From Protoeuglena noctilucae (taxonomy: Eukaryota; Chlorophyta; Pedinophyceae; Marsupiomonadales; Marsupiomonadaceae): 64,000 nt of DNA. The stretch covers positions 654,598-718,597 of the forward strand of contig OY253688.1 in NCBI GenBank assembly GCA_958009085.1, in the 5' to 3' direction. The position numbers were made by a program, and so were the translations under genes. Below, piece by piece: positions 1 through 63,718 of this stretch. Each line of letters opens with the position of its first letter. The first letter of the stretch is position 1. The notes below the pieces were generated by a model. The model was given only the letters and a program-made list of their open reading frames with translations. It did no database searches and was not told the origin of the DNA.

Positions 1-734
1 GTGAATGCCAGCGTAAGCGTGGTAGACCAGGTGAGACATGGAAGGGGTCAGAACAAAGAAGCAATACTTGTTTTCTCCAAGTTAGGTTATGGCTTCACCT
101 ATGTATCGCTCATGTCCCCTATTCCCACCTTCCCAGGTGGCCGCGATGGTGCAGCGTTTTGAGGACCGTCATTTGGGGTCGGCGCAGCTGAGATTCGATG
201 CCGAGACGGTGGCGGCGGAGGACCCCTCGCAGCTGCAGGACCTTTCAAATATCGGGAGGGCGGTGGCGGAGGTGAGGGGGTGGTAGATGGGGTGGTGGGG
301 TGCGTATGGAGTGGCGGAGGTGAGGGGGATGGTGTTTACTGGTTACTGAGGGCGGTGGGGTGGGGACTGATAGTGGATTTGTCTAACATTGGCAGGGCGG
401 TGGCTGAGCTGAGGGAGATCAGGTGGTGGTGGAGATGGGGTGGTGGTGGGTGGGTTGGGGTGGGGTGGGTGGGGCGGTGATGGATGGGGTGGGAATGGAA
501 TGGTGGGGTGGTTGGCATGTGGTGGTGGTGTCGCGGTGGTGACACAACAGGCAACAAATTTGAGTGGGAGTGGCAGTGATTGCGCGTGTGTGCTCTCTCA
601 ATGCCTCAGCATGACACTCTCGTGTTACACACTCGCAGCGTTACCTGGGCAAGGACGCCAAGCAGAAGAAGATAAGGCAGCAGGCGGAGCGGTGGATGGA
701 GGAACACGCGGAGATGATCGCAAGGGGGGTGTAG
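1..734 (+). CDS. 3' end of an unrecognised, helix-rich protein gene (5' part outside window)
   Basis: Two exons can be supported. The first is 137-271, preceded by a C-rich acceptor ending in cag and followed by gtgagg; it is 135 nt and phase 0. The last is 639-734, with stop TAG at 732-734. Together they encode about 76 residues, starting VAAMVQRFEDRHLG and ending RWMEEHAEMIARGV. The C-terminus is rich in K, Q, E and R and probably helical or coiled coil. The 367-nt intron between them holds a second, diverged copy of the exon end (376-410) whose donor has mutated from gtgagg to ctgagg. Upstream exons lie before the window. I do not recognise the family. Confidence 0.5.
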
Positions 735-1440
735 TGGGGGTATAGTGTGAGGGGGCTAGAGGGGTGGGGCAGAGGCGTGTGCGATAGCGGTAGCGGTAGC
801 GGTGGGGGTGAGTCCAACAGCAGTCACGCTTTGCGCGATGGCCGCCACGCTGTGTGCGGTAGCGGTGCGTTGGGGGCCACGCTGTGTGCAACAGCTGCTA
901 GGCTGCGTGCGATGACACATGTCCATGCTGATAGCGACCGCAGCAATCCAATGTGTTTTGAGTTTCACCTTAGCCTAGCCGGACCACAGCCATTCCCGCG
1001 CGCTCATTTCAAGCTTGCGCAGAAGCGAGATGTGTTATTGCAAACGCCAGATGGCACAGATGAGTCATTGCAAACGCCAGCTGCGTATATGCCACGCACA
1101 GCTGCGTCCCACATACGCGCTGTATGCTGGACATGCCCGGCGCAGCACGATACATGAAAGACGCAGCACAATACGTGCCAGTTGCAGCACCCGCAGCTGC
1201 ATCCATATGCAAGCCGCTGCTACACACATGCCAGCCGCAGTCGCACCACCCAGTAGTCCCCACACAGCCCCACCGGCGTGCCAGAGACCGCCACAGAGCC
1301 CGCCAAATCCCCGCCCTGCTCTTCCCGTCCTGCAACTCCCACAAACTGCCCACCGAGAAACCACATCTGCCGTGCCCGCACGCGCCTCCCATCCCACGCA
1401 CCCACCCCACCGTCCCCCTCCCAGCCCAGCACCCCCCCAA
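735..1440. other. intergenic, no gene seen
   Basis: No spliced or unspliced reading frame here has protein-like character; open frames on both strands reflect high GC. Short direct repeats are visible: a GGTAGC-type run near 785-805 and repeats containing tgcaaacgccag around 1035-1085. The segment lies between the tail of the first gene and the 3' end of the minus-strand ankyrin gene, so it should contain both terminators. Confidence 0.4.
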
Positions 1441-3173: not shown

Positions 3174-3751
3174 CTACACAGGCCAATGGACAGCGCGAGC
3201 GCATCAGCCGCCTCGATGTCGGCCCCGTCCTGCCGCTAAGTTCCATGATAACTCACGAGTCCTTCAGCCGGCTCCGTCTGCCTTAAAAAGATGCGGCGCG
3301 GACGCTCCGGTTGCCTCAAGCTTCGTGACGTGAGAAGGCCGTCCGAGCTCACACCGCTCGTGCGCTGGCGCCCGATGGCTCAGGCTTGCATCCGACGACT
3401 CGCGAGATGTGCGCTGGGCCGGGCCCGAGTCCTGCGAACGGTCGGAGGGCCGCGCGGGGGAGGCCCCGAGTCGGTTGCGCGCCAGGCCTGCGCAGGAGTG
3501 CCGCCGTCTGCGGCGATGAGCGGACCGACCGGGCCATCCATCAGAGCATGTCTCCAGTCGCGTCCCTGCACCCGACGATTGCCCCGGGATGCGCGCAGGC
3601 AGCCTCGGCGTCGATGCGCGTCATTCTTCAGTCCTACCCTCTGATCTATCGGGATAACATGGGTCCCCGTTTATCGGATGTCATCGTTGCACGGCCATCC
3701 AGTGCACCATCAATCGCAAATTGCTATCGCTGTGCGCTGTTCCTCGACTCT
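3174..3751. other. intergenic, no gene seen
   Basis: This is the upstream region of the F-box/ankyrin gene and the downstream region of the 3752-4620 gene, both minus strand. Open frames on either strand lack recognisable motifs. I found no counterpart here of the last two exons of the 4981-6460 paralogue. Confidence 0.35.
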
Positions 3752-4620: not shown

Positions 4621-4980
4621 GGCTGCCTGGGTATGCTGTGCGGTGGTGGCAGCAGAGGGATGGGAACTGGAGGGCTACGGCTCGCACGCGCGCTGTGAAG
4701 CCGGCTACATGCAGTCAGAAACCTGTCCCTGGCAAGTAGCAGCCCGAGACGCAAATCCCCGTGAGTGAAAGCGCCCAATAACGGTTTTAGTATCCCCTAC
4801 CGGCGTCCGGAGGGTATGGGCATCCCGCAGAACTGCTCGGGTGTGCACGCATGCCGCGCTTCTCATTGCCCAGAGCCTGTCGCGCGCGAAGGCCGCGCCG
4901 CCCACCAAGTCTGGATCATTTCAACGCGAGCAGCCCTAGCTACACTGCTATCCGCAACGATCACTAGCCACGCGCGAGCA

Positions 4981-7263: not shown

Positions 7264-10200
7264 ATGGCCGCCCATGCGTCGTGGACGGTGGACCGCTTCA
7301 TCCGACTTCAGAAAATTGGCGAGGGATTTGCCAGTCACGTGTTTTTGGCAATCGACACGCTCGGCCGCATGCGCGTCGCGCTGAAGGTGCGTCGCAGCTC
7401 CGCAGATGCTCGCCGCGCGGCGCCGCGGCTCTGCGACGCGTCACCTTGGCAATGCCGCGTTTCTTCCTCTCAGATATACCAGAAAAAGAACCTGACCCCG
7501 GCGCTGCTGGCGTCGGTGCGCCACGAGGTGTCGGTGCATGGCCGCATCGTCCACCCGCACGTCCTGCCCCTCCTGGCCGCGTTCGAGGACGGCGGCTATC
7601 TGTGCATTATCACGTGGTGAGCACGCGACGAACTGCATCCGGGCGGAGCTCCCAGGGACTTCGCAGCCGCAGCGCCCGCACAACTGCACTTGGCGCGCTG
7701 GCTCCCACTGTCCCGCACGGCTTGTTGCAAACACCTGGTCCCATTACATACACGATTACATACATGTCTAATTCCGCGTTTCTGCCCTGCGCACCCAGCG
7801 TCGCGGAGAACTCGGACCTCTTCCGCCGCCTCCCCGACATCCGCCGTGACGAGCCGACGGTGGTCAAGCACATCCTGGGGCCCCTGCTCTCGGCCCTCGC
7901 GTCGCTCCACATTGCGGGGTACATCCACAGGGACATCAAGCCAGAAAACATCATGCTGCAGGTGCAACATGCTGCGCGCATGTTGCACCCGAGGTTCTCG
8001 GGTTGCGCGCACTTTGCACACGAGGTTGCACGCTCCGATAGCAGAGCTGCTGGGGAGACGCAAACACGCGCAGGGTTGCCTGCACGCTCCCATTCCCGCC
8101 CCTCTTCCCGCCCTCATTGGCCTTACACCCTGCTCTGCGCTCACCGCCTGCACCCCCACTCCCACCCCCACTCCCGCACCCACTCCCACCCCCACCCTCA
8201 CTGCCACCCCCACTCCAACCCTCACTCCCACTCCCACCCTCACCGCCCCACCCTTCCCCCCTCCCCCCAGGGCTCCCACGCGCTCCTCGCGGACTTTGGC
8301 TTCGCTATCTGCCACCGCCGCCGCCGCGCGCTCACCCGCCTGGGCACGCTCCAATTCATGGCGCCTGAGGTGGTCTTGAACGACCCGCACGACAAAGCCA
8401 CGCATCGCGACGCGGTGCCGCGGGGCGTGCGCCTGCCTTACTCGGAGACGGTCGACGTGTGGGCGTTGGGGGTGGTGGCGTTCGAGTGCATGACGGGCGC
8501 GCTGCCCTTCACGGGGACCACCGAGGACGACGTGGTGGACGCGGTGCTGAGGACGAGGCCGCAGTACCCGGGGACGCTCAGGTGAGGGGGAGAGGGAGTG
8601 GGGGAGTGAGGGTGGCAGAGTGGTAGCAGCAGTGAGAGTGAGGGTAGCGAGCGTCATGACCAAGAGTAAGCGTCTTACATGCAATCGTCTGCATCGTATG
8701 GTCACTGTTCACCCTTCGCAGTCGCGAGGCGGTGGAGCTCCTGAAAGTGTGTTATAAAATCATGACCGGTGTCATCGTGTCAATTATGCTGGTCACACTT
8801 CTCGTTATTATTGCAGTCGCGAGGCGGTGGAGTTCCTGGACCTGTGCCTGGCATACGACCCCGGCAAGCGAGGATCGGCCGTCGACCTCTACTACCACCC
8901 CTTCGTGAGTGTCACACGGACGGGCGATGGGCTGGCTGGGCACGCTCCCACGTGCACGTTCACGCACATCATCCCACTCAGCACATGTGCCAGCTGCGCT
9001 TCTCAACAGCACGTCTGTCCATGACATGACGTCACCCCAGCTGCACTGTTAACAGCCAGAGACGCCATGCCATGCGCACGCATCATCGCACATCGTCAGC
9101 GCCTCAAACGCTCCTGCTGGCTCCCACCCCACCCGATCCACCCCGCCACGCTCCTTCCTCCCCCTCACTCAGATCCGCAAGCACATGCCCCGCGACAACT
9201 GGCACAAGCTGGAGCCGTCTAATTGGGCATCCCCCGAGGCATCTGCCACCGCCATGGCAGCCTTTCCCGCCCTCGTGCCCTCCATGTGCCAGGTGAGCCT
9301 GCGACATGAGAACTGCCAGACACTTGCCGTACGGACTGCGGAATGCGAGAGTCACTCGTCGGAGTTAGCTTCGATCACCACGAGCTGACTGCGGCCGATC
9401 AGCGCAAGCGATTCGCATGGCATGAGACGCCACCACTCATCCCCCTCGCCCCCCCACCCCCTCCATCCCTCCTCTCTCACCTCGCTCCCTGACCCCACTC
9501 CCTCCTCCCCTGCCCCCCAGGCCCCCCCGCCAGTCACTGCAGATGACGGCGCTGACCCCGACCCCCGCACCCCCTCCGCCATCCGCCGCGCATGCGGCTC
9601 CTTCGCTCGCCCCAACCACGAGCCGGACACGCTCACTATCGGCGGCCAGCGGGACCGGTTCCGCGCCCAGCACTCCCAGTTCCAATCCAACCTGCCCCTA
9701 CCGCCGCCCTCGGTGGCGGGGTCGGCTGCCAACTCCCTGCCCATGGGGAACGCCCCGATGCCCTGGGGCCCGCCCACGCGCGACTGGAGCGACCCCGCCA
9801 ACGCCCCGCTCAGCCCCGGCCGCGCCGCACTGCCACCCGTCCGTGTGTGTGCCGGCGACCCTACAAGCGACCTCCGTGCCCGCGCAGTCCAGGGCTCATT
9901 CGCCCAGGCAGCCGCCGCGGCGGTCCACAAGTCCGCGCTCAGCTCCCCCGCGCTCGCCTCCACCCGCGTCCGGCCCAACCCGCGCGCCCCCCAAGTCGCG
10001 CCTGTCGACTCCGGGCAGTCGGCCACCGCCCCCGCACCCTCGGGGCGCAGCTCGGGCATGCTGGGGATCGGGCTCTGGCGCAGCCTCTCCCGGGGCGTGC
10101 GGCCCGCGCCGGCGGGCGTGCTACGGGGCACAGTGTCTGCCGAGGGGGGCGCCAGTGACCGGACCACGCTTTCGGGGGACGTGGCGTGCGTGGGGGGTGG

Positions 10201-14519: not shown

Positions 14520-14955
14520 CGGCCACGCGACGCTGCCCGTCCTCGCCCCGCTCGCAGGCCGCGGCCCGAAGAGTGCTTTTCTGCGGGGCCCTTTGACGTA
14601 GCGAAATCCTTTCCTTTTAACTTTTTTCCTTCTGCGCGCACGGGCGGGCTTCCCTTTGCCCCCCGACCCTTAGCGCATTGCGCCGGTCCTTTTCAGCATC
14701 GCTTTGAGCTTCGACATCCTTGTTAGATTTGAGTCGGCAAGCGCGCAGCTGTGCGACGGCTCGTAGCCGCTGCTGTTTTTGGCACGCCTTCCTTCTTCAT
14801 CCCTCCCCTCCAATACAATGCCTTGCTCTGCCCTCGTCTGTGTGAATGTGGCGCCAGCACTCCACGACGCAGCGTCATTCATCCGCGCGCTGTGGCATAT
14901 CCAAAACGTGTGGCCAGGACAGCTGCTGCCGCTGACATGAGGTTATTCCCTGCCA
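14520..14955. other. short intergenic region between kinases 2 and 3
   Basis: About 436 nt including the 3' flank of kinase 2 and the promoter of kinase 3. A T-rich patch lies at 14600-14630. No gene is seen. Confidence 0.35.
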
Positions 14956-17900
14956 ATGGAGTTTAGGGCCCTGCGAGCACTCTCTGCGTGCAATTCACGC
15001 TTGGGGGGGTTCCAGCAGTTGCTGCGCGAGCAGCGAGGGGAAGCGCGTGGTCCTGAGCTTGAGGGAGCGAGCGAGATGAACGCTCTTCTGGAGGCTCCGG
15101 AGCTCCCGGGGGACCCCATCCGGCTGCCGTTCTTCTCCTCCGCATGTCCGCCCGAGTTCGTCGCGCCGCTATCGCAGCGGCGCTTTCTGCGGCTCCAGCA
15201 GATCGGGGCAGGGATGATGAGCACGGTGCACCTGGCCGTCGACACCATGACGAAGAGCAAGGTGGCTCTGAAGGTGAAAACGTTTGGGGCGAAGACGCGG
15301 CGGCGCTGGGCGCGCGGGCGAGCGACGCCCGTAACGCCCTGCCGGCCTAATGCTGCCTCAATGTGCCTCCGTGCGCCGTTTGACCCTCGAAGCACGCCTC
15401 TACCGCTGCCGCTGCAGATGTATCTTCTCAGCTCTCTCTCGCCGGCTTTGCTCAAATCCGTAAAAGCCGAGGTGGCAATACAAGTGAGTGACGTCGTCAT
15501 GGGTCGTCCCAGCGTCGCAGCTACCCCGCAGCCACGGATGGGCGTTTCACGCGCTGCTCCGCTTTTCTACCACCCCAGGGCCGTCTCCGCCACCCCCACA
15601 TCTTGCCGCTCTGGGCGGCCTTTGAGGATGGCAAGCACCTCTGCATCGTGTCCAAGTGAGAGAGCGGCGGCAGGCGGGCTATGGGGGCGGAGAGAGCGCG
15701 CAACGGATGTATATAATCGATCTCGATGGCCTGATGCGGGTCTCCCGTGAAACCCGGCTCCTTCGCCAAACTCCCGTCCGGCTGCGCAACGTCGTTGCTT
15801 TTCGCGCCTCGCAGGTACGCGGAGGGGACGGACCTCTTCCGCCGGCGCTCGGCTGTCCGTAGGGATGAACCCGCGGTGGTCAAGCACATCGTCGGGCCCC
15901 TTCTCTCGGCGATCTCGTCCATGCATTTGGCCGGCATCGTGCACCGGGACATAAAGCCCGAGAACGTCCTCCTCGAGGCGAGCCGCGCCCTCTCCGCGAT
16001 GCGTAGCGCCCGCGCCGCGCCGCGCCTCTACCCTGTGCCGCGCGTCGCGGCTTCTCGCCTAACGCCCGCTCGCCGCCTCGCCCACGCTATCGCTCCCCAT
16101 TTCCCGCCCCCCCCGCGCCCGCGCCGCCCCATCACCACCGAAACTTTCCATAATATGAACCATTTCATCTTAATCCTTCCATTTCCAGGGTTCCCACGCC
16201 TTCCTGAGCGACTTCGGCTTCTCCGTGAGCCTGCGCCACCAGCGCCCCGTGACCCGATTAGGCACCCTCGTGTTCATGGCGCCAGAAATACTCGTGGCTT
16301 ATCCGGACGGGGAGGGCAAAGATTCCGGGGCGGGCGTGATGCGGAGGGACGCCAAGAGGGACGCCAGGGCGCCTTATGACGAGGGGGTGAGATGGGTGGG
16401 ATGGAATGGGGGTTTGTGAATGGAGTTGATATATGTGTGGTAATGTCACACGGCACTGTTTGTGCATATATGAGACGCGAGGGCGCCGAACGACGAGGGG
16501 GTGAGGGGATATGAGATGTGTGGGGTGGGGCATGCGGGATGGGAGATGGGGGATGGGGATGCAAACAAGTGCACAGTGAGCGACAGTGGAGTAGACGAGC
16601 ACATGCAGAATGGGCCTGCGCTGCCCCTCCCATCTCTCAAATCTCTCACTACCTCCCCCCCCCGCTGTGTTGTGTGCGCATGTGGGTGTGTTTGTTCTGC
16701 CCTCTCCCATCTCTCAAATCTCTCACCACCTCACCCCCCCTGCTGTGTTATGTTCCTCTGCAGGTGGATGTGTGGGCGCTGGGTGTGCTGACCGTGGAGT
16801 GTTTGACGGGCCATGCGCCATTCCATGGGGAGTCGGATGAAGACGTGCTGAGGAGCATCGAGGGGGGGTGGGAGATGGGGGGTTCGGTCAGGTGATGAAT
16901 GGGGTGGATGAGAGAGTGGTGATGATAGGGGCTGTGGTGAGGCAGTGGTTGACAGCGACGGCGTGTTGGCCCACTCTACTGACACCATCGTCGTGCCTTG
17001 GCCTGTGCTGACAACACCCCCCTTTCTCCCCCCCCCCCAGCCCCAACGCGGCTGACTTCGTGCGCAAGTGCCTGACCGTCGACGCCAGAAACAGGCCCGA
17101 CGCCCTGGACCTGTACCGGCACCCGTGGGTGAGTGAGGGGAGAGGAGAGGTGTTTGAAACGCCGTGTGTGTCGTGTCACAAGCCATGGCTCATTGGCAGT
17201 GTGTGCGTGTGTATGCCCGGCAAGCTATGTGCATACTCCCTCACCCCCAGATCCGCGGCAACATGCCCGCCAAGCTCTACGCACACTCACTCCCCCACTC
17301 ACCCCCTCACCCCCTCACTCCCTCTCTCACTCACCCCCTCACTTCTCTCTCTCCTCTGCAGATCCGCGGCAACATGCCCGCCAAGCTCTACGGCTACCTG
17401 GACCCCACGCGGTGGATGCAGGGGGCGGCAGACCCCACGCCCATGACGGTGAGCAGTGTGTGGGGTGATGATGTAGGGAATTTGTGACGGAGTGGTGCTG
17501 TCATGCTGAGCGGTGTCTACACCCTCACTCCCACCCCCACTGCCACCCTCACCCCCACCCTCCCCCTCCCCCCCGCAGTCCCCCTCCCCCACCTCCTCCA
17601 ACCACACCACCCCCACCTTCCCTCGTCCCGACTCGTTCGCCATCGCCGCCCTCCCCACCTCCCCCCTCCCCTCCCTCCACCCCCTCGCCGCCGCACTCCG
17701 CGTCGCGCCATCCCCCGCAAGCAGCACGGTGGTCAGTGCTCACAGCGCCGCCCCCCGCCGGCCCCGCATCTTCTCGACACGCCAGTCGCGCCACCCCGGC
17801 AACCCCGGCACCCCCACCCGCGCCTCCGCTGCGCTCCGGGACCCCTCGCTGGGCCTCTCGGCGCACTCCGCTACCCTCTCTGCCACCGCCGCGACCGGCA

Positions 17901-38343: not shown

Positions 38344-41300
38344 TCACAGCTGCCCCGCCGCATCGTCATCCTCATCGTTGTCCCCCTCATCCTCCCAGAA
38401 GCTCACCGGCCCCGCAAACACGATCCCCTGCGCCACCACGCAAGCGCCCACCAGCCCGCCACCCATGGACACGCTCGCACCCGCGCTCGCCTTGCGGCCC
38501 TCGGGGTCGCGAGACGCACGCACGTCCATGCGAGACCCGTCCGCCGTGATCAACACCCCGCGCAACTCCATTCCCTCATCCGACTTGTTCCCATTCCCAT
38601 TGCCACCCTCGCTGCCACCCCCGCACCCCTCCCCCCCGCACCCGCCGCCCTCGCCCCACCCGTCGCAAGAGGGGGGGTCGGCATCGGCACGCGCACTCGC
38701 ATTTGCGTCAGGCGCCCACCCGCACGCGCCACTGTTCTGTGCGGCCCAGAGAGCGCGCGCGCGGCCGTGGGTGGGGGGCCAGCGGGGCTTGGGGAGGAGG
38801 GCGGGGGTGGCGGTGGGGGGTGGGGCGGAGGTGGTGGAGGTGGTTGGTGAGGGTGACGAGGTGGGTGCGCCTCTCATGCGCGCTCGCTCCTCAATGCGGT
38901 GCCTGGGGGGGGGGTGGGGGGAGAAGAGGGGAGTGGGTAATGGAATGGCACTGCATGCGACCAACAACACTCCACCTCGCTCTCGCCGTCACTGCCCACC
39001 TACCCCATGCACTCCCTCTCTACCCACATCCACACTTCACTCCCCCATGCACTCCCTCCCACTCACCTCAATGCCTCTCCCCCATGCACTCCCTCCCACT
39101 CACCTCAATGCCTCGTTCTCGCTCCCCCTCCTCAGCAGCTCCTGCAGGCTGACGCCACCACCCCCCCGCCTGCGTGATGCGCCCAGGGGCAGCAGAGAGG
39201 CGGTGGATGTGGATGCGGAGAAGGGGGGGACTGGGGGGGAGAGGAGAGAGGGAGTGAGTGGGAGTGGGAGTGGGATTGGCAGTGAGTGTGACTGCGATGG
39301 ATGGCATGCCAAGCCAGCTCAAGTGCAAGCCACTTGCGAATGTGCGCGACTGCCGCATATGCATGCACCACACACACACGCTCCCCCCCCCCCTCACCTT
39401 CCTCTTCCCGACCCCTCGCGTCCCCCCCCCTCCCTCCCCCCCCACTCCCCCTCCCCCCACGTCGGCACCCCCCTCGGCTCCCCCCTCACGCGGATCATGC
39501 CGCCCTCGTAGTGAAGCACGTAGATGTCGCGGTCGCCCAGCAACACCTGAGAGTTGTGGGAAGTAAGACGTTAATTAGTATCATTGGGGTTACTAGTCAC
39601 CCAGCAACACCTGGGGGGGCGAATAACGAAAGGTTCAAGCATCCGTCATTGTCACCCAACAACACCTGGGGAGAGTGGAATGGCAGGAGTAATTCAGTTC
39701 ATTGAACATCAGATAATGGCATGGTTTGCGCGGGCGATATATCACAGATGTACCACCCACCCTCCCCACCCCTCACCTCATCCCCCTCCCCCTCCCCCTC
39801 CTCGCTCCCCCCCTCCTCGTCACTCCCCCCCTCCCCCTCATCCTCAGCCACTGCCTCTGTCGCTGCCTCCCCCTCATCGTCTGAGTCAGGCGCCTCCACC
39901 CCCGCAATGCCCAGCAGCTCCAAATTCAAACCCATGGCTGCGGAGGTGGGGGTGGGGGGTTAGAAATGTGTTGTTGGCATCTATGTTGCACACAGATGGG
40001 ATAGGATAGGCAACACATGCACCTGGGCAAGCATGCACACGCACACTGACTGACGCACGCACACACACACCCACACCCACACACACACACACTCACCCAC
40101 ACACACACACACCCAACTTATACACAAATACAAACACTAGCACCCATACACCCACAGACTCACCCGACAGCGTCGACTGCGCCGTGTAGTCCGACAAATC
40201 AAACACCTCCACCCCTCCCCCGGGCGCCGCCGCCGTGAGACCCCTGGGAGCCTCGGCCCCACTCCACGCCCCATTATCATACCCGTGACTGTTGCTGTGA
40301 AGATTCGAATGCTGACCACCCCAATGCCCCCTCTCCCCCCTCTCTCCCTCCAGCACGGTGTACCGATCTTTCGCCAGCTCCACCGCTCGTTCCAGATCAG
40401 TGGCGAGCACGGTGGCGAGCGGGGGCACGAGCACCGATCCGGGCCTCTCCACGTGCAAGTGGGCGTTGAGGTCGGATGCGGCGAGCACGGCCGAGGATGC
40501 GTCGACGCGCATGACGGATGCCGACAGGGGGAGGTACGGCTGCACGTTGTCGAGGAAGCGGTCAGCATCCGATTGGTCCTGGGTGATGAGAGAAGGGGGT
40601 GAGTGGGTGAGTGGGTGATTGAGTGGGTGAATGTGTGAGTGAGGGTGAAAGGTGCAGTGGGGGAGGTGTGGTGGGGTTGAGAGGGGAGTGTGTGTGTGGA
40701 GTGGTCAGGTGAAGAGGCGTCATCGATCGTGCATCTATCCATCACAGTCACCATCACCCCCTATAACTCGCCTGGAACACGGGCACGATGTCCCTGACCA
40801 AGTCGCACCCCTCCTCGACCGCCTTGAAGCAGTACAGGCCCATCATGCCCTCATGCTCGAATGCGAGAGCGAACACGCTGGGGGAAGGGGGAGAGGGGAG
40901 CGGGGAGTGAGCCTCTTACTCACTCCACGCCTCTTAACAACGTTACAGTCACACTCACACCCATACAGTCACCACCACAGTCACCCACCCCACCCCCATC
41001 CCACCCCCACGTCACACCCCGTCCCACTCGCACTCACCTCCTCGGCATCCACCCCTTCACGGCCCCCCACAGCGTCCACCCATCCACGTCCCCCTCCGCC
41101 GTCGCCTGCAGGTACCGCAGCGACAGCAGCGACTCCTCCATGCCGCCCGCGCCGAGCAAGTCCGCGGGGTGGGGGAGGGCGTCGAAACACGAGGGGGGAG
41201 GGGGGCCGTCCATGCCGGGGACACCGCCCGCCCCGTCCAGGCCCTGGGGGAAAGGATAAGGATAAGGGGAGGCGTTTGAATGAGTATAAATGTGCGTATA

Positions 41301-43623: not shown

Positions 43624-46600
43624 ATGACGCAGGCCGCGCCGGCCCCGAAGCTGCCGCCGCTGGCAGCGGGGATCCTCGAGTCCCTCGCGGCGCGTCAGCC
43701 AGCGGCGGTGGTGGTATCGACGGCGAGCTTCGACGTCCCCACGGGCCAGGTGGCTGGCCGCGACGCGAATTCACGTTGAAATTGCCTAATTTTGGTACGC
43801 GCAGTTTATTCATATCATAAACTCCGCGTTTCTGTCCCCGCAGCGCCTCGACTCCCACGCCCTGGCCTCCACGTCGGGGCCCCCAGATGCGACCCCGCGC
43901 CCCAACTCCCGCGGCAAGGCCCTGCCCCCTCTGCTGGCATCGGCAGCCACCCCGGTGAGTCGAACCAATCCGGTGGCACACGGGTCGTGCCTGTCACACA
44001 GCGGGGCGATGCCTAACCCTGTGTGGGCGTGTGCGCATCCATACACAGCCATCAGCGCCCATCCCTACACATATGAAACCCCTCATTTCGCCCATCGCAG
44101 ATGACGGGGACTGGTGCACCGGCACGGGGTCCCTCAGACACGGGCAATGCACCCAGGAGCGCCCACGACAGGCTGGGAACGCGTGAGTGGGCGACTGAAC
44201 ACGTTGTGATGCAGCTGGCGGAGGGGTTTGCGATTGATCCCCCTGCCCATGAACATGCAGTCTACCCATCTCTTTCTTACCTTCCCTCACTTGTTTAACC
44301 CTCTCTCCCCCCACCCCCTCGCTTCCTCACCCCACCTCTGTTGCCCACCCACCCCCATCCACAGTATCGGTGCGCACGGCTGGCAAGGCGGGCGTGTTAT
44401 TAGAGGCAGTCACTGCCGATGCCTTCGCCACGGCTGCGGGGGCGGGGGAGTGGGACGACCACGGCCCGGACGGCATGCATGGGGTGCGGGGGGCACACGT
44501 GTCGGCAGCGGCACTGGAGGTGAGGGGGGCATTGGGGGGTGGAATGGGGAGTAAAGGGTAACACGTAGTCTCTGTACGCACATTCTCATCCCTCTTTTCT
44601 TACAGCGCACATTGTCTCACGTCGTCTGTGCACCCTCGAATCACACTGACACAATGCCAGTACATCATCACTACTCCCCCTCCCACCTGCAGCGTGCGCT
44701 GTCCCAGGTCGTCTCTGAACCACGCATGCTAATACATCACTACCCACGCATGCCAACGCATCACTACTCCTCTCCCCTTTAATGCAGCGCGCCTTATCCC
44801 AGGTCGTCTCTGCCCTGGATCCCTTAGGCGATCCTGGCCCCTCCCCCCCCCTCGCCCCCCTGCACCGACTGGGGCTGTCCAGGGAAGCACTGGGGCAGGC
44901 GGGGGTGCCCGCGGACATTGCAGAACGGTGAGAGGGAGGGACAATGTTTGAATAAGTACTGTTTGGTTGTTTATAGTCTCTACGTGCCTTCACTGTTGAC
45001 ACCCCGCATGCGTTAATGCTTCACTCCGTAGCTACACTTCAACCTCATCCCACCCCTCTACTCCAGCTTTCACAATCACCATCCCTCTCTCACATTCACA
45101 AAACTACTCCCCCCACTCCCCTCTCCTCAGCATCCACCGCCTCCTCTACGTCAGCACCGTCGGATTTGGCGCGTCGCTCTCCGCCGCCCTCCGCCCCTGC
45201 CGCCACCGCTCCAGCGACGTCATGCGGAGAATCGTCACGGGATACCTGGCCCTCGCGTGCGCGTCCCTGCGCCACACCTTTCACTCGGAAGTGCTGGCGC
45301 TGGCCGAGCTGACGTCCGCGCAGGCGGCCGAGCTGCACGACAGGCTGGAGAGACTGGCGCAGGTGGGAGTGACGGTGGGACCGATGGATGTGCCTCTCCC
45401 TCATGTCTCTCACATCTCTCCCTCATCTCTATCACTCTTTTCACCTCTCCCCCATCCCCATCTCACTTCAGGCCTACACCGACCAGTCCACGCTCGAGCG
45501 CGCCCTGGCCAGCGTCGTCTCCGCCCACGCCGAGGAGGTGTCGCGGAACAGGGCACTGACGGGGCAACTAGAGAACGTGCAAGCAACTGTGGAAGATTTG
45601 GATAAGAGATACGCCATGACCAGGCACCAATACATCGCGGAGGCGCAACACCGGGCGGACCTGCAAGCAGAGGTGGGGGCATGACGTGCGCGTGTGTGTC
45701 TGTGTCTGTGTCTGTGTCTGTGGAGATGTGAAATGCAGGGACTGCGAAGGAGGTGGATTGCCGGATCGGAGTGACTCTGTTACTCTGCGCTGCATGCCCG
45801 CTCACGCACCCACACGCCCACCCCACCCTCTCACGCCCCCCCTCTCCCCTCTCCCCCACTGTTACCCCTCCCATTCCTCACACCCCCGTTATTCAAATCC
45901 CCCCCAGGTCGCCTCCCTCCGGCAGCGCGTGGCATCGGCCGAGGCGACCGCGCAAGAGTGCCGGGAGGGGGAGAGGCGCGCGGAGGAGTCGCTGTTGAAA
46001 TTCAAATCGGAGACGGAAGCCGAGCTGGCCAGGGTGCCGGGGCTGGAGGAGGAACTGGCCAGGGAAAGGGGTGAGGGGGTTGGATGGGGTGCAGTGAGGG
46101 ATGGGATGGGGGCTTTTGGGTTGTGAAGACGGGTGAGTGGGGGTGAGGGTGAGGGAGAGATGGGGTTGTGGTAGGAACAGAAATGGTTATGGAGAGGGGT
46201 GAGGGGTAAAATGGCATGGGGGGTCGCGTCCCTATCTATCCCGCTCATCCCCTAACCCTCACCCCCCCATCCCCCCTCCCATACATGTCCCCTGTTCCCC
46301 CATCTCCCTTCCCCATCTCATCTACCCCCCCACCCTCCCCAATCCCCCATCTCCCAGGCCTGCGCGAGGCTGCCGAGGACCGCCTCTCCTCCCTCTCTTC
46401 TACAAACGAGCGATCGGAGTGGCGGCAGAGAGTCACGCACGCGCGCTTCCAAGAAGAGATGGGGGCCAAGGGGGCCATGCAGGAAAGAGTACTTAAAGCA
46501 GAAAGGGGTTTAACTGAAGCTACCGGGGAGCTCGCGCGGCTGAGGGAGGAACACCGCAAGCTGGGGAGGGTGTATGAGGAGTTGTTGACGGAGGGGGCGG

Positions 46601-48057
46601 GGCTGCGTGCGTCGGTGTCTCGGCTGGAGTTCGAGAGGGAGCGGCTGGTGGGGGCGAACCGGGAGCTGGAGACGAAAGGGATCGAGATGCAGGCGAGGGG
46701 GGTTGGGTGGGGGAATGGGGGAGAGTGGGTGATGGGGTGGTGTAAGGGATGGAGAGGGTGGTGATGGGAGATGAGCGTCAGGGAGATGCATGCGAGGGGG
46801 TGGGGGTGATGGGGGATGGGTGGTGTGAGTGAGGAGAGTGGTGGTAAGAGACTAAGGGGATTGAGATGCAGGCGAGGGGGTGATGGATGGGGAATGTGCG
46901 GGTGATGGGGTGGTGTGAGGGCTGGGGGCGAGTGGGTGACGGTAGCTGCCTCCATGCGTGCGAATGGGGAAGCAACGTGCTCCCCCGCCACCCCTCTCCT
47001 GCCACGTGTGCCACTCCCCTTCCCCCTCCCTCCCCATCCCTCACCTGCTCTCGTCTCCTCTTCACCACCCCAGGAGGCCCTGGAGCGCAAGCGAGAGAAG
47101 AAGCGCGCTTACAAGGCAGCCGCGTCTGAGCTGCGAGGGTCCCGCGACAGTGCGGTGGAGCAGATCGAGCATCTGAGGTCGCAGCTGCAGTCGGTGACCA
47201 AGGAGAGGCAGGCGGCGGGGAGGGAGTGCGAGAGGGCCATGGGGGAGGCGAGGGGGTTGAGGTGAGGGGGGCGGAGTTGGTGGCAGTGGTTGGGGGTGGA
47301 AGTGGGGGTGGGGGGGTGCGGGCGAGTGGGGAGATGACTGTGCTCACCCACACACATCCCGCATCATCCCTCATCCCACATCACCCATCTCACCCATGCC
47401 ATGCATTCACTCGCAGGGACCACCTGTATATACCAATGCGTGGCCTCACCCGCACACCTATCGTATCTCTCATCCCAAGCATCTCCTATGCACTCGCAGG
47501 GACCACCTCCGCTCCGTCACGCTGGGCTTCACGCACGCCGTCCGCGCCCTCCGCGCCAACCAGACGGCCAGGCGATACCTGCAGCGGAGAGTGGCGGAGC
47601 TGTCGGCGGGGTGGACGGCAGCCAATACGCGGCTGGTGGGGGTGGAGAGGAGACTGGAGGGGCAGGTGAGAAGGGGGGGTGGGATGTGGTTATGAGAGGT
47701 GGATGGGTGGGTGTGAGGCATTCCCTCCCCGTTTCGCACCCCATCCAATTCACCCTCCTTTTCAAATCTACCACCCGCACCCCACCTCACCCCATCATTC
47801 CCCCCCCATCCATCCCAGGTCGCCGAGTGCGCGCGCCTCAGGGACACTTTATCCGAATTGGAAAAGGACCTGCAGGCCGCATCCCAGCGCGCATCGGACG
47901 CCGAAGACAACGCCCGGCGACTGGAGGCGGCGTTGGCAGAGGCGGAGGGGCGGCTGCGTCTGGGGAGGGACGACTTCGCGACGGCGCAGGAGAGGCTGGA
48001 GGAGGCCAAGAGGGGGAGCGAGGGTGAGTGTGGGGGTGGGGGAGTGTATATGTCTGT

Positions 48058-48095
<38 letters not shown>

Positions 48096-50901
48096 CTGCA
48101 GGAGGCCAAGAGGGGGAGCGAGGGGGAGCGTGTGGTTGTTGTGTGGTAGAGGGAGGGGGAGGGTGGGGCAGAAGACATGGCAGGCCGCGACTCACCTCCC
48201 CGCTCCCGCCATCCCCGTCACTCCTCACCACCCACCCCACCCATGCTATTACTCACCACATCAACACCCCCCCCAAAACCCCTTATCCCTGCAGCTCTCG
48301 AGGCCACCTTAGCCACCCTCCGCCGTCAATTAGAAGAGCGCGCGGCAGAGCTGCAGGCGGCGCGTGACAGGGCGGACGCGGCGGAGCGAGAGCTCAGCAC
48401 CGTGCGTGGGACGGTGGCGACGATGAAGATCGAAAAGACGCAGATGCAGGGGCAGCTGCAGGCGGGGAGGCAGACGATACGGGTGAGTGGGAGGGGATAT
48501 ATAGTGTGAATTAAGTGATGATGGGTGCATGCGTGGGAGGCAGACAATACGGGTGAGGTTGAGGGGTGGGTGAGTGTCATGCACCATTTGCCAAGTGCAC
48601 CCATCACACTCACCGTCTCTCTGCCACATTCCACTGCTTTTGCACGACCTGTAGTCCTGAGATATGATATGCTCACATTCCTCTCTTATATTCAAATTCA
48701 CTCGCAGGATCTTCAGTCCAAAGTGGCCGAGGAGCAGACGCGCGTGAAGGACGGGCTGGCGAGGGAGGCGGCACTCAAGGCGACGGTGGCAGATCTGGAG
48801 AGGCAGCTGAGGGGGGCCACGGGACGGGGAGACGGGCTGCAGGTGAGGGGGTTGGATGGTAGTGGGAGAGATAGGATGGGGTGGCATTGCAGGGGAGAGT
48901 AAGGTCAGCGACAGCTGTGCGCAATCCAACTCCCTCTCCCTCTCCCGTATTAGATTCCACAAATACTCATTCTTTCTCACTATCTTATTCCAATTTTTCA
49001 AATCTTTACACCCCACTCCCTCTGCCCCTACGCAGACCCTCTTGGACGAGCAGCGTCGTCTTTTGGAGGAGGAGAAGCGCCTGCGAGCGGCAGACGTGGA
49101 GAGACTCTTAGCGGTACAGGCGGCGGTATCTGATGAGTTGGAAAAGACGAGAGAGGATCTAAAGCGGGAGGTGGAGGGTCGCGGGGAGGACGTGCAGTGG
49201 CGGGAGGAGGAGATGGCGCGGCTGCGGGCGGTGTTGGCAAAGCAAGCCGAGGAGATCGAGGAGAAGAAAAAGACGATCGAGGCCAGGGATAAGAGGATAC
49301 AGGCGAGGAGATGGCTGTACTGCGCGGTTGCATGGTTGGCTGGTTGTCCGCCGCGGTCGTTTTTGTGATGTGTTTGCACTGTTATATGGCTGCTTGTGGG
49401 GGATTAGCCCCTAGGCACATCACTGCTGTGCTGCTACCCCCAACCACCTGGTTACGGCAGATGTGCGATGCGAACGGGTCGGTGTCGTTGTGTGTGTCGC
49501 AGGAGTTGCGTGACCGCATTGAGAAGCAGAACGGCGCCTTGGAGGATCTGCGGGAGAGGCTGGACGAAGAGAGGGAGAGGAACGAGAGATTAAATGAACA
49601 GAAGGTCTACTTCGAGTCACAGGTGGGTATTTGAATGGGGGGATGGCAGGTGGGGTGAGGGTTTACTTCGAGTCACAGGTGCGTATTTAAAAGGCATGCG
49701 AAAAGCCCAGACAGACTATGGGTGTGCTCCTTTCACAAGTCTGACCCACTCACTCACTCCCTCACTCACTCACTCCCCCACCCACTCTCAGGTCTCTTCG
49801 ATCAAGGCGGCCAACGACCACTTGAACGACAGGCACGTGATGGACGAGGAGGAGATCCGCAGGCTGCAGGGGATGCTGGTGGAGGAGGGGAAGGTGCTGG
49901 CGTCATCGCAGGAGGAGCAGGTGAGTGTGTGACATGGGGCATGGGGCATGGCATGGCATGGGGAGGTGCTGCGTCATCGTATCCGGGAGATATCCGGGAG
50001 ACACCCGGGATCGCAGGAAGAACAGGCGAGTGCATGGCATGGGGCGCATGCGTGGTGTGATGAGATGGCATGCGGTGGCAAAGCAGAGATAGGCGCTCGT
50101 CTCCACCAACCCTCACTGCCACCCCCACTGCCACCCTTAACACCACCCCCACTCCCACCCCCACTGCCCCCCCCACTGCCACCCTCACCCTCCCCCTCCT
50201 CTCCCCCCCCAGGAGCACGCCGTTGCCAAGGCCCGCCAGCAGGCGGAGCTGGCCTCCCGCGCGCGCATGCTCAGCCAGGAGACGAAGTGGCTCAGCGCGA
50301 TGCGACGCGCAGTGGAGGACCTGCGTGATCGCGAGAAGGGGTACGACGCACTGCAGCGACTGTTCAAGGCGGTGGAGCTGAGCGTGGAGGACATGGGGGG
50401 GCTGGCGAAGGGGGTCCGGGACAACGCGGAGCCTGAGGGGGAGGAGAGGGGGGAGGGGGGGGCGGTGCGGGCGCAGCGCAGGCGAGCAAGGGGGGGTTGG
50501 GTCAGTGCTGGTTTGAGTACTGAGTGAGTAGAGGTTGTAAGAGTTGTGGTTGGGATGGGATGGAGGAGTATGCACGTGCATGATGCGACTATCGCCGTAA
50601 TCACCGCCACCGCTTCCCCCATGCACCCTCACTCACTCACCAACCACCCATTCCTTTCTCCTCACATGTTAATCCTCCCCCCTCTCTCTAATTATCTCTC
50701 AGGCTCACGGACCGCGAGAAGGACCGGGAGCGCTTTGTGTCTCTGCTGCTCGAGCGCGTGGACGTGGTGCGTGCCGATTTGGAGAAGGCCAAGGAAGTGA
50801 GGATGGAGTTCAATCGGCCCAAGTCCGCGAGGGGGTACCAGGCGATGCTCAAAGAGAGCCAGGAGCTGGTGGAGGAGTTGGGGGGGAGGGTGGAGAGGTG
50901 A
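43624..50901 (+). CDS. large coiled-coil protein (1136 aa, 19 exons)
   Basis: Exons: 43624-43749, 43844-43954, 44101-44182, 44365-44519, 44788-44927, 45131-45362, 45472-45672, 45908-46070, 46358-46692, 47074-47261, 47500-47665, 47819-48023, 48295-48482, 48708-48842, 49036-49302, 49503-49622, 49792-49920, 50213-50481 and 50703-50901. They total 3411 nt with all phases consistent. Residues ~1-200 are Ala/Pro/Ser-rich. About 205-282 is a compact helical region (IHRLLYVSTVGFG..., SLRHTFHSEVLALAEL). From ~300 to the C-terminus it is almost entirely heptad-like coiled coil rich in E, R, L, A and Q. Probably a cytoskeletal, centriolar or axonemal scaffold; this is inferred from composition only. Donors of exons 9, 15 and 18 are GC. 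At least seven introns hold exon-edge echoes. Confidence 0.78.
44601..44717 (+). repeat. two intronic echoes of coiled-coil gene exon 5 start
   Basis: Copies at about 44601-44630 and 44688-44717 repeat the true junction at 44781-44811 (cag|cgc...tcccaggtcgtctctg). Flanking intronic text (acatcactac..., catgc) is repeated too, giving a ~90-nt tandem repeat in three copies. Only the last copy opens into the long exon. Confidence 0.8.
46769..46884 (+). repeat. intronic echoes of coiled-coil gene exon 9 end
   Basis: The exon end ggatcgagatgcag|gcgagggg (46679-46700) recurs as a partial copy near 46780-46800 (gagatgcatgcgaggggg) and a closer copy near 46855-46880 (ggattgagatgcaggcgagggg), each with the GC-type donor context. 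Confidence 0.7.
48062..48094. repeat. (GA)n simple repeat
   Basis: About 33 nt of uninterrupted ga in the intron after coiled-coil exon 12. It is directly followed by an echo of that exon's end (48091-48123 versus 47993-48023). Confidence 0.9.
49662..49689 (+). repeat. intronic echo of coiled-coil gene exon 16 end
   Basis: tacttcgagtcacaggtgcg repeats the true exon end and donor at 49608-49627 (tacttcgagtcacaggtggg) within about 60 nt. Confidence 0.8.
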
Positions 50902-51438
50902 CGGAGGGGGACGGGGCGTCGCGCGCGGCAGTAGCGATGGGCGTGTACGTAATGGGGGTGCTTGAAGTGTTACACGGAGCCGAGTGGAGGAAGTGTACCC
51001 TAACCCTCGTGAGCGAGAGTGCGGGTGTCGCCATGCGCTCTGTGCCTCTGCGGCGAGGTGTGTTGTCATGGCATGACATGCGCACGGCAGGTCGGTCGAG
51101 TGACCAGGGCTGCGGCAGGAAGGCGGACAGCGCAATTGCCCCATTCACAGACGTTGCCCCTCTTCAAACGCGTCGCCCCTCCAAACGGGGCGGCGAGCGC
51201 GGGGCTGGCCGTGAGACTGCGGCTGGCTACACAGGGAGCGGGCCCTAACAAGGCCCAGCCAGGTTAACATACAAGACAAGACAGGGGGCGTGCGGTGGGT
51301 CAAAGACGCACGCCCGACAGAGAGGCAGGCAGCCAGGCAGTCGCAGCCGTCCGGTCGAGAAGGGAGCGAGCGGCGCTGGCGTGCCCAGAGATTGATGCGC
51401 GTACCACACGCATGCGTATGCGCATATTCAGAGGCGCG
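50902..51438. other. convergent intergenic region, no gene seen
   Basis: About 540 nt between the stops of the coiled-coil gene (+) and asparagine synthetase (-). It should hold both 3' UTRs. Confidence 0.4.
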
Positions 51439-54400
51439 TCACAGGCCGACGCGGGCCATGGGGACCGCCCCCGCGCGCCCCCGCACCCCCCGCACCCCGG
51501 CCGCTGCCCTCCTCGTCCCACCCACAGCCGGCTCCCTGACCAGGGGCCGCGCTTGGGGCGTGGGGCGTGCGTGGGTGCGTGCGTAGGTGGCCTTGACCGC
51601 CCCCTGCCGCTGCGGCGCCTGTGCCTCCCCCTGCTTGCTGACTGCGAGGGGGGTGAGGATAGGGATGTGTGTCGGGACAGGTGCGAAGCAGGGCATGGGG
51701 ATACCGACAGCACTAACCAGGCAGAGCACGACATGCGCCATGCCATAAGTATGGGCCAGTGACGAGGCACCTCGCCCCACCACCCCATGCCCCCCCCATC
51801 CAACATGTCTCACCCGACGCCCCGTTCCCCCCCTCGTGCCCCTGCATCTCGCCGTCCATGCTGGTGAAGAGGGAGCTGCTGGCGTGCACCTTGATGGCCC
51901 TCCCGCTGATTTCGTGCAGGTTGCGCCACTCGGGGTCCCACTCCACCGCCTCCGGGGTCGAGCACGCCACGGAGAGGCCCTTGGGCACCGTGTCTAAGGC
52001 ATGCGAGGACGGGAACTGCTCCTCGAACAACTGCAAGGGGGGGTGGAGAGATGAGTGAGGTTGAGGTTGGGCAGGTGCGGTAGGAAGGAGGGAGAGGTGG
52101 GAGGGGTGAGAGAGGAGGGGGCGCGCGAGGGTGGCGACGCATTTAGCGAAGGGCCGTGCACATGACCATCACCACCCCTCTCTCGCCTGCTGCCTGAGGA
52201 GGTCGTACCACTCACATCAACATTCATCATCCCCCACCACCCCATCCCCTCTCTCGCCTGCCTCAGGAGGTAGTACAGTCACACGACCACCCCCCCTCCC
52301 CCCCCTCTCTCGCCTGCCTCAGGAGGTAGTACTCGCGCGACCGCGGCGTGTCCACCGGGAAGCGCTCGTGCCTCTTGTCCCACATCTCGTCCGTCACCAC
52401 TGTGCGGGCGTAGGCCTTGAGGCCATCCACCCAGTCGTAGCCCACGCCGTCGCTGAACTGCTCCTTCTGGCGCCACAGAACCTGAGTTGCAATGGGGGAC
52501 ACAGGGGGGTTTACGATAAAAACGCCCCAGCGCAGAGACACACACGCCCGCTCGCCAGCCGCAGCAGCAGAGGCAATCGCACGTACACCCACACGCACAC
52601 GACATATGACATCACTCTCGGCTTTCATGACTCCTTCCTACCACACCCATGCCCACCCAGCCACCCCGCCCCCAGTCGCACCCCAGCCCACCCCCCTCGC
52701 ATCCCCCTCACCTCGTCCGGCAGGTAGGGGTCCTCGGGCCGGTCGAACGCCTTGCGCAGGATGTACTTCTCCATCTGCGGGTGCACCCCGTCCGGCTTCT
52801 TGGTCATGTCGCAGACCTTGTCGAGGGGAGAGACGTCCATGGCGTAGTTCATGAAGTCCCGGTCCAGGTACGGCACGCGGGGCTCCACGCCCCACGCGAA
52901 GGGGGCCTTGTTGGCGCGGAGAACGTCCCACTGCGGATCACGAAGCGTGGAGGTGGATATGGTCAGTCAGGGCAGTTACATAACAACGGCGTGCAACGGC
53001 AGCAGCTGCACATGCCTCGCCGCGCGCGATGGGACAACAAGATACGATATGCGCCATGTCACGCGCCATGTCACATGCCATGTTATGTTGCCACCAACCC
53101 CCCCTTCTTTCTCTCGCCTGGTGGAGCCTTGCCGTCTTCCTAACGCACTCCTTGTGGAACTCGTCCGGGCTGGGCGCCTTGTGGAAGTAGAGGTAACCCC
53201 CGAAGATCTCGTCGGCCCCCTCCCCCGACAGCACCATCTTGATGCCCATGGCCTTGATCTTGCGCGCGAGCAGGTACATGGGCACGGCCGCCCGCACCTG
53301 CTCGTAGCTCTCGATGTGCCAGATGAGGTCGCGGAGGGCGTCGAGGCCGTCCTCCACCGTGAAGTGGAACTCAAAGTGCTCGGTGCCCAGGAACTCGGCC
53401 ACGCGGCGGGCGGCCACCAGGTCCGGGGCGCCCTTGAGCCCCACGGAAAAGGTCTTGAGCCGCGTCATCTGGTAGCTGTTGCGGCTCTCGCTGAGGTGCT
53501 TCACCACGATGGCCGCCACGAGCGACGAGTCCAGGCCGCCGGACAGCAGCATGCCGTAGGGCACGTCCGTCATGAGGCGCTTCACCACCGCGTCCACCAG
53601 CAGGTCGTGGATCTTGGCCAGGTCCGCGCGGTGCTGGGGCACGTACGACGCGTCCACCAGCCACCGAGGGGTGAACCACTGGGTGAAGGACACCTGGCCG
53701 TCGCGGGTGGCGCGCATGTAGTGGCCGGGGGGGAAGATGTAGAACTCGCTGCACACCGCCTGCAGCGCCTTCATCTCCGACGCCACCCACACCGCACCCG
53801 TCTGCGGGACGGAGGGGCGGCGGCGGATGAACAGGGAAAGCGGCTCCGCGGGCGGCTTGTCAATCCCCCTTCGAGCTCCCCACCCACCTCGTCCTTGCCC
53901 CAGTACATCGGCGCCTTGCCCATCTCGTCCCGCGAGGCGTAAAAGTCCCCTGTCTTCTCGTCGTACATGGCGAGGGCGAACATGCCGTCCATGCGCTCAC
54001 TGACGGGCCTGCGGAACACGGACGCGGGGCCGGGGGTGGAGACGCGGCCGGAGGCGTCGCCGCGAGGGGCGCGGCGCGCGGGCTGGCCGAGGCGCCGTGC
54101 CAGTCCCGCGGCCGAGTCCGCGCCGCCCGCCAGGCAGCGGCGGCGCGAAGTAGAATGCAATCCCCATCTCCCAAGGCCCGGGAATCCCCAGGCGCCGCGG
54201 AGCGGGCGCGGGACGCCGGGCTCCCCACCCCTCTGGCCGCTCCCGCGCCCCGCGACGTCGATAGTCGCGCCGCAGTCGCAAAAACACGGCGCAGGGAAGC
54301 GATTTCCTCACCCGAAATCGCGGTTGTTGTGAACAAAGAGCGGCCCGGTGACGGCACAATCGCTCGACGACGAGAGCGCTTGTCCCTTGAGCTCCTTCTC

Positions 54401-63480: not shown

Positions 63481-63511
63481 AGGCACGCGAGCTCGCATTC
63501 GGAGCCGTCCC

Positions 63512-63515: not shown

Positions 63516-63718
63516 GGCGCCCCTGTTGCGCGAGCCTAGCTCGTGCGGCGAGGATCCTGGGGGGACTCACGGAAGGCCGGGGGGACTCGGACGCGCGATG
63601 GCGCGATCCGCCGGCCGCCTCCTCGTGGCGCCCTCTGGACACCGCGCCTTTATGGCCGGTGACGAAGAGCCGGTTCACAAAAAATGGCGCGGTGGCGCGC
63701 AGTGCGGTGGTTCGGCGG

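What the first reader, a model, noticed from the sequence alone, without database searches (positions are those of the whole stretch)
137..52481. Exon-edge echoes: introns repeatedly contain copies of the adjacent exon boundary with its splice site
In at least 17 introns from eight genes a segment of ~15-45 nt spanning an exon/intron junction recurs inside the intron. Examples by position (true/echo): 240-271/376-410; 8811-8839/8716-8744; 16360-16391/16474-16505; 17359-17391/17248-17280; 28693-28736/28812-28854; 32845-32878/32754-32790; 31700-31731/31807-31838; 39536-39550/39598 and 39652; 39094-39115/39055-39076; 44781/44688 and 44601; 46679/46780 and 46855; 47494/47410; 47993/48091; 48463/48535; 49602/49662; 49896/49966-50040; 52306/52249 and 52181. 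Tandem duplication of AGGT-containing sequence is an established model of intron birth. Here it seems ongoing and also drives intron lengthening, and it works at both donor and acceptor sides.
Basis: partly seen in the sequence, partly recalled or inferred. Interest (0 to 1): 0.85.

Follow-up and report, generated by a model that had tools for sequence, protein, structure and literature searches.

The report
Tandem duplications hidden inside introns
Short stretches of DNA that straddle exon ends have been duplicated and ended up inside the neighbouring introns, probably making them longer; this is real, but it looks like ordinary tandem duplication that splicing happens to hide, not the birth of new introns.

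Summary
All 17 listed groups contain real repeats, and 16 of 17 sit at a splice junction of an independent gene model. Over 532 introns, exon edges recur in their own intron 24 times against 2.8 expected; inverted copies (5 against 3.1) and copies in neighbouring introns (2 against 5.1) show no clear excess.

The best reading is local tandem duplication at spacings of 37-182 nt: spacers tend to be repeated too once gaps are allowed, and one unit is a perfect 37-nt tandem. Exon edges are not clearly special. Among complex windows of the C21 end, 8 of 216 edges and 19 of 514 interiors have a copy, though only 23 of 1280 within 12-120 nt of the edges (p=0.11). Splicing to the outermost copy hides the rest.

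Intron birth is not supported: its signature shows no excess in 554 introns. Echo splice sites look neutral (23 of 29 intact, about 22 expected). The effect is regional: 17 of 154 introns at this chromosome end, 6 of 351 in another block, 0 of 27 and 0 of 22 in two small samples. Lengthening is plausible, not proven.

The parts
238..429 (+). Donor at 272: true edge 238-298, copies 311-328 (d=48) and 375-429 (d=137)
8699..8846 (+). Acceptor (exon starts 8817, protein kinase gene): true 8790-8846, echo 8699-8751; homology favours the outer copy as the real one
16360..16505 (+). Donor at 16387: true 16360-16391, echo 16474-16505
17236..17392 (+). Acceptor (exon starts 17362): true 17347-17392, echo 17236-17281, 31 of 31 exon bases identical; part of the spacer is a CTCACCCC-type tract
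28693..28858 (+). Donor at 28737 (GC donor in the model): true 28693-28740, echo 28812-28858; the model's next exon is doubtful
31703..31836 (-).
32729..32881 (-). Donor at 32851 (minus): true 32822-32881, echo 32729-32789; similarity continues 30 nt into the intron (4 mismatches)
39003..39114 (-). Donor at 39103 (minus): perfect 37-nt tandem duplication across the junction plus an older third copy
39532..39668 (-). Acceptor (exon first base 39546, minus): true 39532-39549, echoes 39596-39613 and 39651-39668
44576..44812 (+). Acceptor (exon starts 44788): true 44759-44812, echoes 44666-44717 and 44576-44631; units of about 90 nt
46669..46896 (+). Donor at 46693 (GC donor): true 46669-46717, echoes 46767-46830 and 46848-46896
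47380..47508 (+). Acceptor (exon starts 47500): true 47465-47508, echo 47380-47425
47990..48138 (+). Donor at 48024: true 47990-48038, echo 48090-48138; the echo reads GG where the true donor has GT
48457..48566 (+). Donor at 48483: true 48457-48496, echo 48526-48566
49601..49694 (+). Donor at 49623: true 49601-49638, echo 49657-49694
49905..50045 (+). Donor at 49921: true 49905-49940, echo 50010-50045
52172..52342 (-). Donor at 52313 (minus, GC donor): true 52290-52342, echoes 52232-52288 and 52172-52208; near-contiguous tandem array
43624..50902 (+). Hand-modelled gene used as standard: 19 exons, 18 introns, 1137 aa, apparently coiled-coil protein (by eye)

Best explanation
The echoes are fossils of short local tandem duplications (copies now 37-182 nt apart) that arise in the introns of this chromosome end, including across exon/intron borders. 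When a duplicated unit spans a border, the gene stays functional if the spliceosome keeps using the outermost (exon-side) donor or acceptor; the inner copy, with its piece of exon, is then spliced out. Duplications wholly inside exons are mostly removed by selection, so copies survive in the intron and up to about 45 nt into the exon. Afterwards the copies drift: the intron part of each unit, G-rich after donors and C-rich before acceptors, is scrambled by substitutions and slippage, whereas the exon part of the true copy is held by the protein, so the exon edge is what stays recognisable. Repeats of the process give arrays of 2-3 copies and probably longer introns. Shown: the repeats, their locality and mainly direct orientation, repetition of spacers as a group, local duplications in intron interiors too, neutral-looking state of the echo sites. 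Inferred: replication or repair slippage as the duplicating event, selection as the filter, slippage as the scrambler.
For: Copies in the own intron: 24 against 2.8 expected; inverted 5 against 3.1; neighbouring introns 2 of 1736 comparisons against 5.1. Spacers between copies tend to be repeated once gaps are allowed: of 24 hits 19 were testable, 8 with p<=0.043 and 17 with p<=0.205; 13 of 29 intron parts beyond the splice consensus have p<0.035. Perfect 37-nt tandem across a donor. Complex 24-nt windows of the C21 end with a copy: edge 8 of 216, interior 19 of 514, exon 49-72 nt away 0 of 195. Echo dinucleotides intact in 23 of 29, about the 22 expected from the 13% mismatch of the exon parts. 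Echo introns longer at the C21 end: median 235 against 170 nt, p=9e-5. In the kinase gene the outer junction gives the best domain match: 158.6 bits, against 155.6 with the echo as a micro-exon and 142.9 (truncated) with read-through from the echo.
Against: Some very similar copies (17362, 31/31 exon bases; 49623; 48483) show no significant similarity in the spacer (p=0.13-0.17), and 11 of 19 spacers are not significant on their own. The ungapped view looked like dispersed short copies. Interior windows 12-120 nt from the edges have a copy in only 23 of 1280 overlapping cases, half the edge rate (p=0.11), and interior pairs are counted at both members, so a moderate edge excess is not excluded; a slower loss of the exon part could give about a factor of two (inference). 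At the C21 end alone inverted copies are 4 against 1.3 expected. Introns there carry more local duplications than intergenic DNA of the same region (3.7% against 0.75% of complex windows, p=0.0003; p=0.02 at score 15), which a uniform duplication process does not predict. No RNA or population data: use of the outer sites is inferred from reading frame and homology.
Confidence: 0.74

Rival explanations
1. Templated insertion: during break repair or replication stalling at G-rich introns the polymerase switches to the similar motif at the intron's edge, copies 20-45 nt of exon and returns, leaving an isolated copy.
For: Ungapped repeats are short relative to their spacing, and several acceptor echoes match the intron over little more than CAG. 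Echo introns have more G-runs in their first half (4.97 against 3.13 per 100 nt, p=0.015; p=0.11 among introns over 150 nt). Edge rate about twice that of near-edge interior windows (p=0.11).
Against: No clear excess of inverted copies (5 against 3.1; 4 against 1.3 at the C21 end), although this kind of repair commonly gives them (recalled, not tested). Spacers tend to be repeated too. No copies from 49-72 nt into the exon (0 of 195).
Confidence: 0.16
2. The echoes are functional alternative or decoy splice sites kept by selection.
For: 23 of 29 echo dinucleotides are intact, 10 of 10 acceptors keep AG, and acceptor echoes score as well as true ones (9.5 against 9.2 bits).
Against: Intactness is close to neutral expectation; donor echoes are weaker (6.6 against 10.5 bits, p=0.002); spacing shows no multiple-of-3 bias (7, 12 and 10 of 29 for remainders 0, 1 and 2); read-through from the kinase echo breaks the domain.
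Confidence: 0.05
3. Intron birth by tandem duplication of AGGT-containing exon (Rogers 1989 model).
For: Tandem duplication does occur here.
Against: Predicted signature not in excess: exon tail at intron end 1 of 554 against 1.2 expected, exon head at intron start 0 against 0.27 (score >=8).
Confidence: 0.02
4. Introner-type mobile introns or an assembly artefact.
For: None found beyond the presence of repeats.
Against: Of 10 similar intron pairs between different genes among 554 introns, 6 belong to tandem gene copies on C4 and the other 4 are 33-38-nt matches in repetitive-looking sequence. Echo copies are diverged (13% mismatch), local and scattered over many genes, unlike typical assembly errors (inference; no reads were seen).
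Confidence: 0.02

Closest known systems
[quoted passage not shown] Hellsten 2011 ATP2A1; potato RdRp case PMC4974935; passages of that paper read, the first two known through it)
   Same: Short tandem duplications in genes whose effect on the protein is hidden by splicing; the potato duplication covers an intron-exon structure.
   Different: There the duplication creates a new intron; here an existing intron seems lengthened and no birth signature is found.
Intronic tandem repeats (minisatellites; general knowledge)
   Same: Local direct repeats, arrays of 2-3 units, low-complexity turnover, one perfect 37-nt array.
   Different: Units overlap the exon border, so they carry copies of splice sites and coding sequence.
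Direct repeats near splice sites (Rogers and Bendich 2025, PMC11782384; abstract and first part of the discussion read)
   Same: Direct repeats at intron borders.
   Different: Those pair the 5' border with the 3' border (4-30 bp, mean 11.4) and are read as insertion footprints; these pair one border with the interior of the intron, 37-182 nt away.
Introners (PMC9860276; passages read)
   Same: Repeated sequence tied to introns.
   Different: Introners insert copies of themselves into many genes, some with 3-9 bp target duplications; no dispersed intron family was seen in the 554 introns.
Tetrahymena LRR-gene intron length cycle (PMC6564038; passages read)
   Same: Intron lengthening concentrated in particular chromosome regions.
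   Different: There it is tied to a retrotransposon and arrays of 90-bp exons; here to local duplications of tens of bases.

Membership tests
Local tandem duplication | Copies in direct orientation and nearby | tested here: met
   Direct 24 vs 2.8; inverted 5 vs 3.1 (4 vs 1.3 at the C21 end); neighbour introns 2 vs 5.1
Local tandem duplication | Copies contiguous (spacer repeated too) | tested here: inconclusive
   Clear in single cases such as 39103, 86600 and 172205 of C4, 13696, 32851; low p values as a group, but 11 of 19 not significant alone
Intron birth by AGGT tandem duplication | Upstream exon tail repeated at intron 3' end and downstream exon head at intron 5' end | tested here: not met
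   No excess in 554 introns
Introner elements | Similar introns in unrelated genes | tested here: not met
   10 inter-gene pairs (17 of 554 introns): 6 pairs in tandem gene copies, 4 short repetitive-looking matches
Functional alternative splice sites | Splice signals kept better than neutral | tested here: not met
   23 of 29 intact against about 22 expected; donor echoes weaker
Functional alternative splice sites | Use in RNA | not testable with these tools
   No RNA data

The most novel reading that the evidence does not exclude
Introns of this chromosome end are a hotspot in which duplication is tied to being an intron (for instance through transcription and R-loops over the G-rich sense strand of the 5' half), so that splicing both hides and lets accumulate a one-way lengthening of introns at their edges, with donor echoes weakened by selection to avoid mis-splicing.
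Probability: 0.2. Interest if true: 0.6.

Novelty: new member of a known kind. Interest (0 to 1): 0.36.

Why it matters
It gives a readable record of how introns may grow: tandem duplications can eat into the exon border without harm because the outer splice site still defines the exon. Each such event also supplies a duplicate splice site plus exon fragment, possible raw material for alternative splicing. The sharp contrast between two sampled regions (17 of 154 introns at this chromosome end, 6 of 351 in an interior block) would let the rate of intron growth be measured along a chromosome.

Tried and rejected
Gene finding. The first HMM trainings collapsed into merged genes and were thrown away. 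The kept model fixes the splice matrices from the hand-built gene. Introns shorter than 50 or longer than 600 nt, with a flanking exon under 30 nt, or in genes scoring below 30 or with under 450 nt coding, were dropped: 532 introns were used, against 584 from the genes that pass the gene filters. One search stopped with an error after its donor half; it was not limited to complex windows. redid both sides for the C21 end with complex windows only. At two junctions (-20847 and -2290) the predicted donor may be a few bases off by eye, so the intact count could be 25 of 29; the -20847 pair is also weak (13 mismatches in 40).

Templated insertion. Ungapped extensions (11-49 nt in 26 of 27 hits, 84 in one) suggested isolated short copies anchored on junctions, and I held that view for a while. 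Gapped comparison of spacers and the anchored intron parts turned me away from it, not beyond doubt.

Edge specificity. In the complexity-filtered list, 15 of 33 repeats overlap a predicted junction (classes EI/I, I/EI, EI/EI, N/EI), and several of the 11 classed as intron-intron carry splice-like motifs by eye, so it looked like edge targeting. The window counts do not establish it: edges 3.7%, all interior windows 3.7%, near-edge interior windows 1.8% (p=0.11 against edges). Exon stretches 31-60 nt from the junction gave 0 and 3 hits against 0.5 and 0.8 in the earlier gene set, so the acceptor side has a slight excess there.

Subtelomeric effect. The 10-kb sample near the end of C4 (22 introns, mean 163 nt) has no echo at score >=14, and the middle of C21 has 0 of 27. 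Whether chromosome ends in general are affected stays open.

Organism. Not identified. The rRNA search did not complete, and the lineage was not tested otherwise.

Literature. In seven searches I saw no title or abstract start on exon-edge tandem duplication as a source of intron lengthening. They cover open-licence PMC papers and these terms only, and most listings were cut at 10-25 papers.

Odds. After rechecking, confidence in the best explanation went from 0.78 to 0.74 and templated insertion from 0.13 to 0.16, because one search had been left out of the edge-against-interior comparison.
Full report
What was checked. Because no annotation is held, I built gene models. The gene at 43624-50902 was modelled by hand: 19 exons, 18 introns, consistent phases, a 1137-residue product and a stop. 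Three of its 18 introns have GC donors. A hidden Markov gene finder trained from it recovers 17 of the 18 introns while predicting 20 in that span; one of its extra exons, 50017-50025, lies at an echo. It also assembles a lysyl-tRNA synthetase (59826-63116, minus, 11 exons) that aligns from residue 21 to 585 with a solved LysRS with no gap longer than 3 residues. On these models 16 of the 17 groups lie at a splice junction, in eight genes; 31700-31731 lies inside an exon.

Is it more than chance? For 532 introns in 334 kb (C4:1.0-1.2 Mb, C21:604598-718597 including the window, C21:300-320 kb), the 30 nt of exon next to each junction were aligned to the intron. At score 14 or more there are 17 donor-side and 7 acceptor-side hits, against 1.9 and 0.9 expected when the intron is swapped for a length-matched intron of another gene. 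In an earlier gene set (469 introns) the edges gave 17 and 10 against 1.0 and 0.5, and exon stretches 31-60 nt from the junction gave 0 and 3 against 0.5 and 0.8. In the hand-modelled gene alone, 6 of 18 introns reach the threshold against 0.14 expected.

Orientation and range. Inverted copies show no clear excess overall (3 and 2 against 2.2 and 0.9), though at the C21 end they are 3 and 1 against 1.1 and 0.2. Copies in the neighbouring intron are not in excess (1 and 1 of 868 each, against 3.1 and 2.0). So the copies are mainly direct and stay within the same intron.

Tandem or dispersed? Ungapped extension gave matches of 11-49 nt in 26 of 27 hits at spacings of 27-188 nt, which looked like dispersed copies. 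Allowing gaps changes the picture. The spacer between the true edge and its echo tends to resemble the stretch beyond the echo: of 24 hits 5 had too short a spacer; of the 19 tested 8 have p<=0.043 and 17 have p<=0.205 against other introns. For 29 pairs at 24 splice sites (24 pairs entered by hand, 5 found automatically), the intron part beyond the splice consensus is significantly alike (p<0.035) in 13. Some units look contiguous: 39040-39114 is a perfect 37-nt doublet, and 52172-52342 and 44576-44812 read as three successive units. The echo 17236-17281 has 31 of 31 exon bases identical but no matching spacer; part of that spacer is a CTCACCCC-type array (17290-17342), which suggests later slippage growth (inference).

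Is the exon edge special? With low-complexity windows removed, a nearby copy is found for 8 of 216 exon-edge windows, 19 of 514 intron-interior windows and 0 of 195 windows 49-72 nt into the exon at the C21 end; at C4 for 1 of 557, 4 of 903 and 0 of 522. Swapped introns give about 0, 1.2 and 0 at C21. Taken only 12-120 nt from the edges, overlapping interior windows have a copy in 23 of 1280 cases (15 of 651 counted from the donor, 8 of 629 from the acceptor), half the edge rate (p=0.11). Interior pairs are counted at both members. A factor of about two in favour of edges is expected because the true exon copy is held constant while both intron copies drift (inference). So an edge excess of at most a few-fold is possible, but edge targeting is not established. 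The exon part of the echoes runs from 9 to 41 nt in ungapped extension (44 nt with one gap at 28693-28736).

Fate of the copied splice sites. Exon parts of the echoes differ from the true edge at 85 of 654 positions (13%). If the splice dinucleotide decayed at the same rate, about 22 of 29 would be intact; 23 are, counting GT and GC as intact donors. Spacing is not biased to multiples of three (7 of 29). Donor echoes score lower than the true donors (6.6 against 10.5 bits, n=19, p=0.002), acceptor echoes do not (9.5 against 9.2, n=10). In the kinase gene, the outer junction completes the Pkinase profile to its last position (158.6 bits); an echo micro-exon scores 155.6 and read-through from the echo 142.9, stopping at position 245 of 263.

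Where it happens. Introns with an echo: 17 of 154 at the C21 end, 6 of 351 in C4:1.0-1.2 Mb (p=1.4e-5), 0 of 27 in the middle of C21, 0 of 22 near the end of C4. C21-end introns are longer (186 against 116 nt mean in C4) and richer in G-runs in the first half and C-runs in the second. Echo introns are longer still (median 235 against 170 nt); long introns also give more room for a match, so this is not proof of lengthening. In the same region intergenic DNA cut into intron-sized pieces shows 0.75% of complex windows with a copy against 3.7% in introns (p=0.0003; p=0.02 at score 15; in C4 0.27% against 0.44%, not significant). That excess in introns is unexplained and is the most interesting loose end.

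Intron birth. The AGGT duplication model was tested by its own signature, which is not in excess. Introner-like families were not seen: of 10 similar intron pairs between different genes, 6 belong to a recent tandem gene array at C4 local 44-49 kb and 4 are 33-38-nt matches in repetitive-looking sequence.

Verdict. It is best explained by local tandem duplication in the introns of this chromosome end, hidden by splicing when it crosses a border. Intron lengthening is a fair inference; intron birth is not supported.

Noticed in passing
window 43624-50902 and 337 frame-breaking predicted introns: GC donors (mostly AG|GCGAG) look unusually frequent: 3 of 18 in the hand model and 64 of 337 predicted introns whose length is not a multiple of 3 (prediction-based).
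   Followed up: partly
introns of C21:604598-718597: Intron composition flips in the middle: first half 40% G and 21% C, second half 19% G and 42% C, so the two halves could pair; no folding was done.
   Followed up: partly
63717-64000: Window ends in a TTAGGG-type telomere array; contig C21 (718597 bases) ends with the window.
   Followed up: no
59826-63116 (minus): Complete lysyl-tRNA synthetase gene of eukaryotic type with 10 introns, 602 aa.
   Followed up: yes
63408-63481: tRNA gene close to the telomere (Rfam RF00005, 68.1 bits).
   Followed up: no
C4:1044780-1049050 (locus L009): Recent tandem gene copies with introns identical at 100% over 55-147 nt.
   Followed up: no
8722-8748 and 50017-50025: The gene finder reads two echoes as in-frame micro-exons; for the kinase one, homology slightly favours leaving it out (158.6 against 155.6 bits).
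   Followed up: partly
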